In this document: piece by piece, positions 20,368 to 25,102 of the stretch
Layout: each line of letters begins with the position of its first letter
Numbering within the stretch: position 1 is the first letter of the stretch
DNA from: Thermoleophilia bacterium
Lineage (GTDB): Bacteria > Actinomycetota > Thermoleophilia > Solirubrobacterales > 70-9
Assembly (NCBI GenBank): GCA_016650125.1
Contig: JAENWT010000022.1
Span: 1-39,117, forward strand
DNA: 39,117 nt
Direction of reading: 5' to 3'
The notes under the pieces: generated by a model
What the model saw: only the letters and a program-made list of their open reading frames with translations
The model's database searches: none
What the model was told of the DNA's origin: nothing
Translations under genes and position numbers: made by a program

Positions 20368-22272
20368 TCACTTGACCAGCTCCACGTCCATTGGGATCGG
20401 GGCTATCGCTCCGATGCCTCCGAGCATGGCGAGGATCTTGGCTACGTAGGCCTGGGTCTCCGGGTAGTTGGGGATGCAGTTGCATGGTGAAACCGCGCCC
20501 GGGCCAGCGTTGTAGGCGGCGAGGGCGAGTGCCGGCGATCCGAACTGTTTGAGCAGGTCGCTCATCAGGTGGCCCTGGGCGTTGATCGCCGCCACCGGGT
20601 CGAACGGATCGTCCAGGCCGTACGCGGCTGCGGTCGACGGGGTGAAGGCCGCGATCCCGAAGGCGATCCCGTTGCCGGCATTCGGGTCGAAACCCGATTC
20701 GGCGTAAAGCTGTGCGGCCAGAAGGGCGGCCGAGACGTTCCATTTCATCGCCGACGCGAGGATCGGCTTGTGGAATCGGGCGGGAACGAACGAAGGCAGG
20801 GAGTCGCTGAGGGTCTGCGAAGGATCGCCGCGCCCGCCCGCTGCCCCGACGGCGTTGCCGGCGTCGGAACAGGGCGCCGGTCCTGCCGTGAACCCGTAGT
20901 GCCAGGCCTCCCATGAATAGCGCTGCACGAACCCGAAACGGCCGGCGTTCGCCGCCAGCCAGCCGTACCCGTCGGAGGCGCCGAGGTCGAGCTCGGTCGC
21001 GCAGCGGTGGAGTGAGGTCCCTGGCCGGGCGACCCAGGTCGGATCGGGGTTTGCCGCGAACAGCGCCGCCTGCTCGGCATCAGAACGGAAAGCGGAGTTG
21101 ATCGTCAGGACGACGCCCGCCGCGCTCGCCGCCGCGACCATTGCGTCGAACGCCGCGGCCACGTCCGGACGCAGGCCGTGTCCCTGCCGCTCGGCGAGGG
21201 GGCCGCTGTAACCACCCCCATTCGCCATCGCCGGGACCGCTCCCATCGAGACCGGCGCGCCGACCCGGGCCTCGGCCCAGTCGCTGGTCCATTTGCCGGC
21301 ACCGCCGCTCTCGACCTTCGACCGCAACGTCACCCGGGTCCGCACCGGCGCGAAGGAGAAGCTGTCGGGGAATCGCACCGAGACCCGCAGCGGCGACGCA
21401 CCGTTTCGCACGGCGATCCGGATCGCCGTTAACCTGGCCCGCGCCAGGTATTCGAACTTGCTCATATGGGCCGGATTCGGCAAGCCGTTCGGCAAGGTTG
21501 GCGGGGCCAGCAGGCGTGGCAGGTCCCTCTTCATCGACCTCGCCGCCGAGAGCGCCGAAAGGTCGGCCACCGTCTGGGCCCGCGCCTTACCCGTGATCGC
21601 CCCGGCGATCATCACCAGCGCGACCGTACCCAGCACGAGCACGAAGACCGCGCCGAGTACCAGCGGCGTCGCCTGCCCCCTCTCCTGCAGAAGCCGTGGT
21701 CGGTTGCGGGTCGGTTTCGCTCTGACCCGGGCGACCGCCCCCGCCAGGAACCGGCGGGCCGGCAACCGGCCCGGAGCGTCTTCGACGACCTCAACCCCAA
21801 CCGCCAAAGACCGTGCCTCACGCTCGGCCAGGGCAAGCAGCGCCCGTGCGCCAGCCTCCTCCGACCGGTCGGCCCTCAGCAGGACCGCTTCGACCGGAAT
21901 CGTTTCGAGAAGCCGCCGGTACCGCGACGCCGGAGTGCAGACCACCCACGGTGCTTCCGCCGGCAGCTCCGCGATCAGGTCTTCGATCAACTTCGGCGCT
22001 TCGTCCGTATCCGGGATCGAGACGAAACAAAGTCGGCCGCGGGTCCGCACTGTTGCTTCCCCGTCCGGCCGGGTCAGGGCCGCCTCAAGCTGCTTCGCCG
22101 GACCGGTCGCGACCACGGTCGCCGGCCGCGGCTTCCGGTCACTGACCTCGAAGAGGACGGCGGCACCTTCGTCCCCGGCCGAGCCCACGGCGGCCCGTGC
22201 TGCCACCGCCACCGCACCTTTGGCGTCGGCGATCGCGGTCACCAGGGTTCCGGCCGGTCCTTCAGCACTCAT
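20368..22272 (-). CDS. TadG-like membrane protein fused to M15 D,D-carboxypeptidase and lytic transglycosylase
   Basis: The 634-residue protein has four parts. Residues 1-190 are an alpha/beta region of unknown family. Residues 198-250 match the TadG/Flp-assembly N-terminus: RGQATPLVLGAVF, a membrane helix (about 203-225) and then ADLSALSAARSM. Residues 370-462 are a VanY/M15-type peptidase with R396, H422, D429, E455 and H458, all expected zinc/catalytic positions. Residues 498-615 are an SLT-type transglycosylase with catalytic E525 in AESGFDP and ALAAYNAGPGAV. It thus appears to be a membrane-anchored enzyme with two peptidoglycan-cutting domains. It overlaps the TadE-like gene upstream by 4 nt (ATGA), so it belongs to that operon. 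The fusion is unusual. Confidence 0.85.
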   Translation of the reverse strand: MSAEGPAGTLVTAIADAKGAVAVAARAAVGSAGDEGAAVLFEVSDRKPRPATVVATGPAKQLEAALTRPDGEATVRTRGRLCFVSIPDTDEAPKLIEDLIAELPAEAPWVVCTPASRYRRLLETIPVEAVLLRADRSEEAGARALLALAEREARSLAVGVEVVEDAPGRLPARRFLAGAVARVRAKPTRNRPRLLQERGQATPLVLGAVFVLVLGTVALVMIAGAITGKARAQTVADLSALSAARSMKRDLPRLLAPPTLPNGLPNPAHMSKFEYLARARLTAIRIAVRNGASPLRVSVRFPDSFSFAPVRTRVTLRSKVESGGAGKWTSDWAEARVGAPVSMGAVPAMANGGGYSGPLAERQGHGLRPDVAAAFDAMVAAASAAGVVLTINSAFRSDAEQAALFAANPDPTWVARPGTSLHRCATELDLGASDGYGWLAANAGRFGFVQRYSWEAWHYGFTAGPAPCSDAGNAVGAAGGRGDPSQTLSDSLPSFVPARFHKPILASAMKWNVSAALLAAQLYAESGFDPNAGNGIAFGIAAFTPSTAAAYGLDDPFDPVAAINAQGHLMSDLLKQFGSPALALAAYNAGPGAVSPCNCIPNYPETQAYVAKILAMLGGIGAIAPIPMDVELVK

Positions 22273-22598
22273 GGCGACTCGGCTGTCGCGGACGAAGTCA
22301 ACTCGAGCCGATCCCCGAGCGAGGCGATCAGAGCCGGCGGTTGCAGCCGCACCTCCACCCGGTCGCCGAGGTGCGTGACCGAATAACGCGAGCGAGCCCA
22401 GCCGGGCAGGGCCTTCCGAACCGCGACATCGACCGGCTTACCCTGAACCAGGGCGACCGCACCCGCTTCGGCGGCCCCGTCAGCCAGGGTCGACGAATAG
22501 CCGGTGGCCAGTAGCTGAAAGCAGAGCGCCGCGGCCAGCATCAAGGCGGCGATGCCGGCCACCGCCTCGACCGATGCCTGACCGGACTCAGCCGTCAC
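22269..22598 (-). CDS. TadE-like small membrane protein
   Basis: The 109-residue protein starts MTAESGQASVEAVAG, the Gly-Gln-x-Ser-x-Glu pattern of TadE-type pilin-like proteins, followed by one hydrophobic helix (about 14-33) and an extracellular domain of about 75 residues. Such proteins have a prepilin-like N-terminus and act as minor pilins or assembly factors in Tad/Flp systems. It overlaps the next TadE-like gene upstream by 11 nt and the TadG-like fusion gene by 4 nt. Confidence 0.75.
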   Translation of the reverse strand: MTAESGQASVEAVAGIAALMLAAALCFQLLATGYSSTLADGAAEAGAVALVQGKPVDVAVRKALPGWARSRYSVTHLGDRVEVRLQPPALIASLGDRLELTSSATAESP

Positions 22599-22935
22599 CG
22601 AGCGAACCGGTCCCGTAGACGAAAGATTCCGGCAGCCCCGGGATCAGGGCGGGAATGCGCACGCCGACCTTCAGCCCGTCGTCGCGGGTGACCTTGAGGT
22701 CCCGCCGCAGGGGTCCGGGTAGAGCGTGTTCGGCCGCCGGCCGCGGCGCTTTGCCGGTCAGCACCGCCCTGGCCCCCGCCTTCGCGGCAATGCCCGCGGA
22801 CCAGAGGGCGTAACCGGCGATCACGATTTGCGCCGCCACCAGCAACGACAGCAATACGATCGGCAGGGCCCCGATCAGCTCAATCGAAACGGATCCCCGT
22901 TCGCCACCCCGCCTTCTCTCATTGCTCAGCGCCAT
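22588..22935 (-). CDS. TadE-family pilus assembly-like protein
   Basis: The 115-residue protein has the basic leader RRRGGERGSVSIELIGALP, then a hydrophobic helix (about 20-42), the classical TadE G-S-x-x-x-E signature with Glu19, and a short extracellular part. It is the first gene of the tadE-tadE-tadG-like set; the ATPase and membrane platform genes (tadA, tadB, tadC) are not in this window, and the 75 bp upstream (22936-23010) holds no recognisable promoter. Confidence 0.8.
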   Translation of the reverse strand: MALSNERRRGGERGSVSIELIGALPIVLLSLLVAAQIVIAGYALWSAGIAAKAGARAVLTGKAPRPAAEHALPGPLRRDLKVTRDDGLKVGVRIPALIPGLPESFVYGTGSLGDG

Positions 22936-23942: not shown

Positions 23943-24755
23943 TCACACGCTGATCCGGGCGATCACGGGCGAATGGTCCGAAAGGCGGATCGCCAGGTTC
24001 GACTCGAAGTCGGGCACGTCGCGGCGCTCCGGCTTCCAGCTGACCGTCGGTTCGGCCATCGCGCCATTCCGCAGCAGCAGATGGTCGATCGAGCCTTCAT
24101 CGGTCGGCGGCTCGAATCCGTACTTGAGGTGCAGTTCCTCGAAGGCCGAGCTGGACCGCGGCCTGATGTTGAAGTCACCGCCGAGGACGAGCGGCAGGTC
24201 GCCCGCCCATTCGACGGCCAGTCTGGCCGCCCGGAGCACGTCGCGCTGGCCGTGCTCCCGGCCGGTGCTGGCGTGGATGTTGGCGACGCAGAGACCGCCG
24301 TTCAGCTGAATCATCGAGAGCGCCCGCCGCTCCGGTAGCCAGCAGAGGGTCTGGTTGTTCCGGGTCACGATCACGCCCCCGGGTTTGTCGTTGCGGACGA
24401 GGATCAGGTTCGAACCACCCTCCCAGCTGCCTGGCAGATGCGGCCGCACGCGAGCGACCGGCGACATCACCGGCGACATCCAGTTGCGGGAGGTCAAGGC
24501 GCGGTGATGAGTCGCCCCGGTGGCCGCCGCGAGCCGCTCGTCCCAGCGCGGCGGCACCTCCTGGAGCAGGGCGATGTCCCAGTCGGCGGCGGCCAGGAAC
24601 GCGCCGAACTCGTTGAACAGGTCCCGGTTGAGCAGGACGTGGCTCGCGCCGGTCACCGGCCTGCCCAGGACTCTCCAGGAGAACCCGGCCGGTCCCGGTT
24701 CGGGTGGGAAGTCCCGGCCGTGGAACAGGTTCCAGGACAGCAGCCGCCAGTTCAG
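23943..24755 (-). CDS. Endonuclease/exonuclease/phosphatase-family protein, probable CTG start
   Basis: The family motifs run in order: WNLFHGR (Asn), LLQEVPPRWDERL (Glu), NIHAS, LGGDFNIRP (Asp/Asn), SIDHLLLR and LSDHSPV (catalytic His). The first motif lies upstream of the first in-frame ATG/GTG/TTG (GTG 24656). Extending the frame back gives LNWRLLSWNLFHGRD directly, and the only possible start is CTG 24755, which overlaps the previous gene's TGA as CTGA and has GGAGG 10 nt upstream. That gives 270 residues. Such proteins hydrolyse phosphodiester or phosphomonoester bonds in nucleic acids or lipids; the substrate is unknown. Confidence 0.82.
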   Translation of the reverse strand: MNWRLLSWNLFHGRDFPPEPGPAGFSWRVLGRPVTGASHVLLNRDLFNEFGAFLAAADWDIALLQEVPPRWDERLAAATGATHHRALTSRNWMSPVMSPVARVRPHLPGSWEGGSNLILVRNDKPGGVIVTRNNQTLCWLPERRALSMIQLNGGLCVANIHASTGREHGQRDVLRAARLAVEWAGDLPLVLGGDFNIRPRSSSAFEELHLKYGFEPPTDEGSIDHLLLRNGAMAEPTVSWKPERRDVPDFESNLAIRLSDHSPVIARISV

Positions 24756-25102
24756 TAGCTCTTCGCCTCCGAAAAGACCAGCCAGATCGCGATGCCGGCT
24801 GATGCGAGCAGCAGCAGCCAGGCGAGGGTCCCGAGACCGGTGCTGAACATCATCGAAGCGCCGGCGATCAACAGCACCACCAGGCCGAAAGCCGAAAGCA
24901 GCACGAGCCGGCGGGAGTCAGGCAGGGCCAGCATCATCAGCTGGTTTGCCCGGTACCCTTGGTAGACGGCAAACGCAAGCACCGCGAGGAAGGCCATCGT
25001 GATCGCCGTGAGCACGGCAGCGGCGAAGTCTCCGCCATTCGGCAGGAAAGCGACCCCCAAGGCGAGCACGGCGATGATCAGGATGTTGCGGACCGTCTTC
25101 AT
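24752..25102 (-). CDS. Small membrane protein of unknown function
   Basis: The 116-residue protein has four predicted membrane helices (about 7-21, 26-48, 65-84 and 88-109) and no recognised domain. It is translationally linked to the endonuclease/phosphatase-family gene (4-nt overlap), and 30 bp separate it from the small membrane protein after pit. Confidence 0.6.
   Translation of the reverse strand: MKTVRNILIIAVLALGVAFLPNGGDFAAAVLTAITMAFLAVLAFAVYQGYRANQLMMLALPDSRRLVLLSAFGLVVLLIAGASMMFSTGLGTLAWLLLLASAGIAIWLVFSEAKSY

What the first reader, a model, noticed from the sequence alone, without database searches (positions are those of the whole stretch)
20368..22935. TadE-TadE-TadG-like set whose last protein carries two peptidoglycan hydrolase domains
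The 634-residue protein joins an unknown N-terminal alpha/beta region, a TadG-type membrane segment, a complete M15 (VanY-like) site and an SLT transglycosylase with its Glu. TadG-like proteins normally have von Willebrand-type or unknown extracellular domains. A pilus-assembly anchor with its own cell-wall cutters would suggest a machine that opens the wall for a pilus or secretion apparatus. No Tad ATPase or platform genes are adjacent.
Basis: partly seen in the sequence, partly recalled or inferred. Interest (0 to 1): 0.7.

Follow-up and report, generated by a model that had tools for sequence, protein, structure and literature searches.

The report
Tad pilus anchor with wall-cutting domains
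An actinobacterium of the order Solirubrobacterales makes what looks like a Tad pilus whose membrane anchor protein carries two cell-wall-cutting enzymes, conserved throughout its order, which suggests how this kind of pilus gets through the cell wall, a step for which no dedicated enzyme had been reported.

Summary
On the minus strand, three overlapping genes encode two small pseudopilins (TadE-like, G|xxxxE prepilin site) and a 634-residue protein: TadG-type membrane segment (Pfam Tad), complete M15/VanY site, SLT transglycosylase with its Glu. It is no chance fusion: 58 of 61 relatives match it, full Tad-M15-SLT matches occur in five families of the class and nowhere else in a 396-genome phylum sample, and all catalytic residues are kept in 49 of 49 aligned proteins. 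The "unknown" N-terminal domain is most likely a P-loop-less relative of the Tad positioning ATPase TadZ/CpaE; it is a separate gene in many relatives. The missing machine is elsewhere in the same genome: cpaB-tadA-tadB-tadC beside the division/wall (dcw) genes, a prepilin peptidase, and an orphan Flp-type pilin beside rph-rdgB found here. Fusion, this TadA lineage and the orphan pilin co-occur strongly; genomes with only canonical one-locus Tad lack the fusion. Best reading: a dispersed Tad pilus with a built-in wall opener. A 2025 Tad paper states that no peptidoglycan hydrolase had been reported with Tad pili. Muralytic activity and pilus dependence are untested.

The parts
22588..22935 (-). 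TadE-like pseudopilin 1 (115 aa), prepilin-type site RG|SVSIE
   Evidence: ORF; weak NCBIfam TadE_Rv3655c E 0.02; motif and position conserved in relatives
22269..22598 (-). TadE-like pseudopilin 2 (109 aa, GTG start), prepilin-type site SG|QASVE
   Evidence: ORF; weak NCBIfam TadE_Rv3655c E 0.003; motif and position conserved
20368..22272 (-). 634-aa TadZ'-TadG-M15-SLT protein; ATG overlaps the stop of TadE-like 2 by 4 bases
   Evidence: homologues in 58 of 61 relatives
21718..22272 (-). N-terminal cytoplasmic domain (residues 1-185), MinD/ParA-like fold without P-loop, distant relative of TadZ/CpaE
   Evidence: model pLDDT 75-90 over residues 11-160; VIA Z 8-9.4 to Wzc/VpsO kinase, BcsQ, ParA, FleN, MinD over residues 2-183; profile chain to CpaE; separate gene in relatives
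21538..21678 (-). TadG-type membrane segment (residues 199-245); RG|QATPL lacks the Glu at +5
   Evidence: Pfam Tad E 1.2e-5; +5 never Glu in 47 aligned relatives
21181..21537 (-). extracytoplasmic linker with beta strands (residues 246-364)
   Evidence: secondary structure in model; inference
20890..21180 (-). M15/VanY-like peptidase domain (residues 365-461), Zn ligands H422, D429, H458, base E455
   Evidence: Pfam VanY 5.7e-13; residues kept 49/49; nearest solved chains are VanY-type
20491..20763 (-). SLT lytic transglycosylase domain (residues 504-594), catalytic E525
   Evidence: Pfam SLT 4.3e-14; E525 49/49
24752..25102 (-). 116-aa multi-TM protein, conserved upstream of the TadE genes in families f1-f5; possible accessory part
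   Evidence: gene neighbourhoods; no Pfam family over cut-off

Best explanation
The three genes encode the pseudopilin and anchor part of a Tad (type IVc) pilus machine whose genes are spread over at least four places in the genome. Two TadE-like pseudopilins are cut by the prepilin peptidase and join or prime the fibre. The third protein is a TadG-type subunit that stays in the membrane: its cytoplasmic N-terminal domain, a P-loop-less relative of TadZ/CpaE, helps place it with the TadA/B/C motor; one TM helix crosses the membrane; outside, a zinc M15 (VanY-like) peptidase trims or cuts stem peptides and an SLT transglycosylase cuts glycan strands, so that a local opening is made in the wall where the Flp fibre leaves. 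Shown here: domains, intact catalytic residues, conservation of the fusion, co-occurrence with one TadA lineage and an orphan Flp-type pilin. Inferred: processing, topology, location at the pilus base, enzymatic activity and wall opening.
For: Domains above Pfam cut-offs and invariant catalytic residues in 49/49. Fusion matched in 58/61 relatives, in families f1-f5 of the class, not outside them in 396 genomes of the phylum. Own genome holds cpaB-tadA-tadB-tadC at C12, a prepilin peptidase at C1 and an 82-aa orphan pilin with G|QGTVEYVGLILL at C3:98661-98909, syntenic across f1-f3. Genus g1 has no PilB/PilT-type ATPase match, only this TadA. Within the order, fusion vs this TadA type 48/7/2/16 (p 6e-9) and fusion vs orphan pilin 57/3/3/15 (p 1e-10). 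Genomes with both Tad types keep a canonical TadG-vWA for the canonical locus and the fusion besides. The N-domain is fused or separate in close relatives, a link by gene fusion. One relative adds an M23 peptidase to the same operon.
Against: No experiment. The genes are not adjacent to the motor, so linkage rests on co-occurrence among related genomes, which are not independent. TadE assignments are below model cut-offs; the orphan pilin matches no Pfam or NCBIfam model. Direct profile comparison of the genus N-domain with CpaE is not significant (E 0.086). Two genomes (G026, G247) have the TadA type and pilin but no fusion match, and six have the fusion without TadA, possibly assembly gaps.
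Confidence: 0.65

Rival explanations
1. The Tad motor here does not (mainly) build an adhesive pilus but drives a wall-remodelling device for growth or division: ATP-driven movement of pseudopilins positions or activates the M15-SLT enzymes, comparable in logic to FtsEX-controlled hydrolases.
For: In 40 of 40 loci where both are seen, tadA-B-C of this type lies upstream of and on the same strand as mraZ, 17 of them within 450 bases; canonical tad loci 0 of 19. TadG enzymes fit wall work.
Against: A conserved orphan Flp-type pilin co-occurs with the system, which a pilin-less remodelling device would not need. Neighbourhood may only reflect old gene order. The fusion is absent from several genera of the same order.
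Confidence: 0.15
2. The fusion rides at the pilus tip as a minor pilin, and the enzymes attack walls of other cells (a lytic pilus for contact killing or nutrient release).
For: TadG has been predicted to act as a minor pilin (PMC12307814), and a Tad-like machine kills prey in Myxococcus (PMC8460266).
Against: The fusion lacks Glu at +5 in all 47 aligned cases and in four the Gly at -1, and in this genus it carries a ~195-residue cytoplasmic domain before the TM segment, which suits a stationary anchor. No immunity gene is seen next to it.
Confidence: 0.08
3. The protein is an ordinary membrane-bound wall hydrolase that borrowed a TadG-type TM segment; it has nothing to do with a pilus.
For: Motor genes are not adjacent; neighbours are housekeeping genes (MaoC-like, uvrC, phosphate transport).
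Against: Preceded by prepilin-type TadE genes in nearly all loci; TadZ-like gene in the same operon or fused; tracks a single TadA lineage and a pilin.
Confidence: 0.08

Closest known systems
Tad/Flp (type IVc) pilus system, actinobacterial form (Rv3660c-Rv3654c type; canonical loci in the same class such as L092:543-9413)
   Same: TadA-type ATPase, two T2SSF platform proteins, CpaB/RcpC-like SAF protein, Flp-type pilin, prepilin peptidase, TadE-like pseudopilins, TadG-type protein, TadZ-like domain
   Different: Genes spread over at least four loci; TadG carries M15 and SLT enzymes in place of a vWA domain; TadZ lost its P-loop and is fused to TadG in this genus; pilin lies alone beside rph-rdgB
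TadG / Rv3654c-like proteins (Pfam PF13400, NCBIfam TIGR03816)
   Same: N-terminal Tad segment; last gene after TadE genes
   Different: I know of no member described with peptidoglycan hydrolase domains; TIGR03816 score 29 against cut-off 51
TadZ/CpaE/Ssd (MinD/ParA superfamily positioning protein)
   Same: Predicted MinD-like fold; position in the Tad gene set; profile chain f1 -> f3 -> f5 -> CpaE
   Different: No Walker A in this genus; membrane-tethered by fusion to TadG
Dedicated transglycosylases of other envelope machines (VirB1 of T4SS, flagellar FlgJ/SltF, type III EtgA/IpgF; own knowledge)
   Same: A wall-cutting enzyme encoded with, and serving, an envelope-spanning apparatus
   Different: Those are separate proteins; here two enzymes are part of a core membrane subunit of the machine

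Membership tests
Tad (type IVc) pilus system | TadA/CpaF-type ATPase in the genome | tested here: met
   T2SSE 5e-67 at C12; best NCBIfam match TIGR03819 TadA family 325.6 bits, below its cut-off 373
Tad (type IVc) pilus system | Two platform proteins TadB and TadC | tested here: met
   T2SSF 9.9e-15 and 2.8e-12, adjacent to tadA
Tad (type IVc) pilus system | Flp pilin with G|xxxxEY site | tested here: inconclusive
   82-aa orphan ORF G|QGTVEYVGLILL, aligned with a canonical Flp and syntenic in f1-f3, but no Pfam/NCBIfam model hit
Tad (type IVc) pilus system | Prepilin peptidase | tested here: met
   PF01478 E 8.8e-15 at C1
Tad (type IVc) pilus system | TadE/TadF pseudopilins and TadG | tested here: inconclusive
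   TadG segment over Pfam cut-off; TadE-like pair by motif and position, below model cut-offs
Tad (type IVc) pilus system | RcpC/CpaB alignment protein | tested here: inconclusive
   SAF over cut-off (22.5 vs 21); RcpC and TIGR03177 matches below cut-off
Tad (type IVc) pilus system | A Flp fibre on the cell surface | not testable with these tools
   needs microscopy of a cultured strain
TadZ/CpaE | MinD/ParA-like fold | tested here: met
   VIA Z 8-9.4, rmsd 3.0-4.3, 141-175 residues, against Wzc/VpsO kinase, BcsQ, ParA, FleN, MinD; a second, poorer model gave only weak matches
TadZ/CpaE | Walker A-like loop | tested here: not met
   absent in this genus; GGCGAT-like remnant in f3 (L031)
TadZ/CpaE | sequence profile similarity | tested here: inconclusive
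   indirect chain E 1.7e-5, 1.2e-9, 1.7e-22; direct E 0.086
M15 VanY-type peptidase | SxHxxGxxxD and ExWH zinc site | tested here: met
   S420 H422 D429 E455 W457 H458 in 49/49; position 425 is Gly or Ala
SLT lytic transglycosylase | catalytic Glu and AYNxG motif | tested here: met
   E525, Y587 N588 G590 in 49/49
Rv3654c family TIGR03816 | whole-protein score over cut-off | tested here: not met
   29.1 bits against 50.95

The most novel reading that the evidence does not exclude
One polypeptide unites the site-choosing (TadZ-like), membrane-anchoring (TadG) and wall-cutting (M15 + SLT) functions of a Tad pilus, so the cell opens its wall exactly where the motor sits; this is a built-in solution to how Tad pili cross a thick wall, and its expression is tied to the division/wall gene cluster.
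Probability: 0.45. Interest if true: 0.82.

Novelty: new variant of a known kind. Interest (0 to 1): 0.72.

Why it matters
How a Tad fibre passes the peptidoglycan is open: a 2025 structural study of the Tad alignment complex states that, unlike other appendages, no peptidoglycan hydrolase or lytic transglycosylase had been reported with Tad pili, and supposes recruitment of general enzymes (PMC12307814). Here a whole bacterial order and a further family carry both enzyme types inside a core Tad subunit, with invariant active sites. That makes the question testable: mutate two residues in one gene and look for pili. It also gives TadG, so far uncharacterised, a possible role as the anchor that brings wall enzymes, and shows a Tad system scattered over the genome that single-locus searches would class as incomplete.

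Tried and rejected
Flp_Fap (PF04964) in the own genome gave two weak hits inside unrelated genes (E 0.006, 0.11): rejected as pilins. This led me first to think the system had no pilin, until a Flp protein query showed one weak match recurring in nearly all relatives, which proved to be a conserved orphan pilin. Chance fusion or assembly artefact: rejected, 58/61 relatives. A separate second model of the N-domain was poorer and its Foldseek list mixed P-loop and macro-domain folds with no significant hit; I rely on the full-length model and the profile chain. The full-length model is poor over M15 and SLT (pLDDT 30-60), so no structural claim is made there. Large plus-strand ORFs over the locus (e.g. 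21293-22378) are antisense to a conserved gene and taken as GC-rich noise. Literature: no paper found joining Solirubrobacter(ales) with Tad pili, or Tad pili with transglycosylases in Actinobacteria; only open-access papers were searched.

Full report
WHAT IS THERE. The window is contig C22 of a 2.83-Mb, 95% complete genome. On the minus strand three overlapping genes read TadE-like 1 (22588-22935), TadE-like 2 (22269-22598) and a 634-aa protein (20368-22272). The 634-aa protein has three Pfam domains above cut-off: Tad 199-245, VanY 365-461, SLT 504-594. The M15 zinc site (S420, H422, D429, E455, W457, H458) and the SLT Glu 525 are complete, and identical in 49 of 49 aligned relatives.

NOT A CHANCE FUSION. 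Of 61 genomes from own genus to order, 58 have a match (43 of 43 among the good assemblies; a few only to the SLT part) and most cover Tad segment, M15 and SLT in one frame. In 249 genomes of the class, full-length matches occur in families f1-f4 (the order) and f5 (another family of the class), not in f6-f12. With a nine-sequence profile, in 396 genomes of the phylum the listed matches outside f1-f5 cover the SLT part only. Named relatives are MAGs of Solirubrobacterales.

THE TWO SMALL PROTEINS. They hit no Pfam TadE model and only weakly NCBIfam TadE_Rv3655c. But each begins with a basic or polar stretch and a type III prepilin site, RG|SVSIE and SG|QASVE, followed by a hydrophobic helix; G|xxxxE is found in 62 of 72 distinct relatives' proteins at these positions, and most exceptions are short start-site calls. 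The fusion itself has Q-A-T/L-P-L after the Gly and never a Glu at +5 (0 of 47), with Ala instead of Gly in four. Inference: the small proteins are processed pseudopilins, the fusion is not processed and stays as an anchor.

THE N-TERMINAL DOMAIN. Residues 1-185 are the least conserved part. In many relatives it is a separate gene between tadE2 and tadG, and in one genus (g2) both states occur. The AlphaFold2 model of the full protein is confident there (pLDDT 75-90) and poor over the enzymes. Structural comparison of that part gives MinD/ParA-superfamily chains: VpsO and Wzc kinase domains, BcsQ, ParA 3ea0, FleN, MinD, Soj, Z 8-9.4 at 3-4 A over about 150 residues (Foldseek E 1.7e-3 upward). 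By profiles, the genus domain matches the f3 separate protein (E 1.7e-5), that one matches a 226-aa protein lying between cpaB and tadA in f5 (E 1.2e-9), and this matches canonical CpaE (E 1.7e-22); four unrelated control families give E 0.29-0.84, and the direct comparison to CpaE is not significant (E 0.086). In f3 a GGCGAT loop remains (L031); in this genus no P-loop is left. So the domain is most likely a TadZ/CpaE that lost its ATPase site. A second model of the domain alone was poorer and its search unspecific.

THE REST OF THE MACHINE. At G000:C12 lie a wHTH regulator, a histidine-kinase-like protein, a CpaB/RcpC-like SAF protein, TadA, TadB and TadC in a row, next to mraZ, rsmH, ftsI and murE. 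At C1 is a 143-aa prepilin peptidase. At C3:98661-98909 is an 82-aa orphan pilin...NG|QGTVEYVGLILLVSLLMVGMVAAMKGF..., beside rph and rdgB, with syntenic homologues in f1, f2 and f3. It matches no Pfam or NCBIfam model and was found only through a Flp query. The genus has no PilB or PilT match, only this TadA.

TWO TAD TYPES. A tree of 90 TadA proteins of the class splits into 19 canonical (17 beside Flp, TadE or TadG-vWA, with CpaE, in one cluster) and 71 of a second type, none beside canonical TadE/TadG. The second type lies upstream of mraZ on the same strand in 40 of 40 loci where both are in view; canonical loci 0 of 19. In the order, fusion and second-type TadA: both 48, fusion only 7, TadA only 2, neither 16 (five genomes unclassified; Fisher p 6e-9). 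Fusion and orphan pilin: 57, 3, 3, 15 (p 1e-10) (the counts were read by hand from the tables of those calls). Genomes with canonical Tad alone (G174, G196, G221, G239, G241, G260, G266) lack fusion and orphan pilin. Genomes with both types have a TadG-vWA for the canonical locus and the fusion besides (G060, G056, G208). These genomes are related, so the p values overstate independence, but the absences in genera g32-g34 and g36 are joint.

MECHANISM. Shown: domain order, intact active sites, conservation, co-occurrence. From the positive stretch before the TM segment and the Tad family topology, the N-domain is inside and the enzymes outside (inference). The simplest account is a wall opener built into the pilus anchor: M15 cuts or trims peptide stems, SLT cuts glycan, at the spot chosen by the TadZ-like part. 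One relative adds an M23 endopeptidase to the same operon (L047:10698-11513, E 3.8e-22), which fits a wall-cutting task. Rivals: a motor-driven wall device for growth or division (dcw link), a lytic tip, an unrelated hydrolase; each is weighed in the Rival explanations section.

KNOWN AND NEW. [quoted passage not shown] A 2019 survey of type IV filaments left many actinobacterial systems unclassified for want of recognisable minor pilins or TadC, and describes TadZ as a FleN-type ATPase with an atypical Walker A that recruits Tad parts (PMC6668835). I found no paper on Tad pili in this order. I rate this a new variant of a known kind: a Tad pilus with scattered genes and wall enzymes in its TadG.

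Noticed in passing
L093:3304-4254 (G000:C1:139303-140253, +): 316-aa protein with a pilin-type start (HG|QSTVEWIGLVLLVTALMAG) and a ~280-aa C-terminal region without Pfam match, about 6 kb from the prepilin peptidase; similar frames in several relatives. Candidate minor or tip pilin of the same machine.
   Followed up: partly
window 24752-25102 (-): 116-122-aa multi-TM protein of no known family, found upstream of the TadE genes in families f1-f5; may belong to the system.
   Followed up: partly
L047:10698-11513 (-): Peptidase_M23 with FlgD-type Ig domain inserted in the tadE-tadE-TadZ'-TadG operon of one relative.
   Followed up: yes
L043:8592-13050 and 40 relatives' loci: Second-type tadA-B-C always upstream of mraZ on the same strand, i.e. 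joined to the division and cell wall cluster.
   Followed up: yes
window 20368-22272, residues C597 and C599: A CxC pair after the SLT core is kept in 45 of 49 relatives; possible disulfide or metal site.
   Followed up: no
window 21293-22378 and elsewhere, plus strand: Long antisense ORFs over conserved genes, typical of 65% GC; taken as not genes.
   Followed up: no
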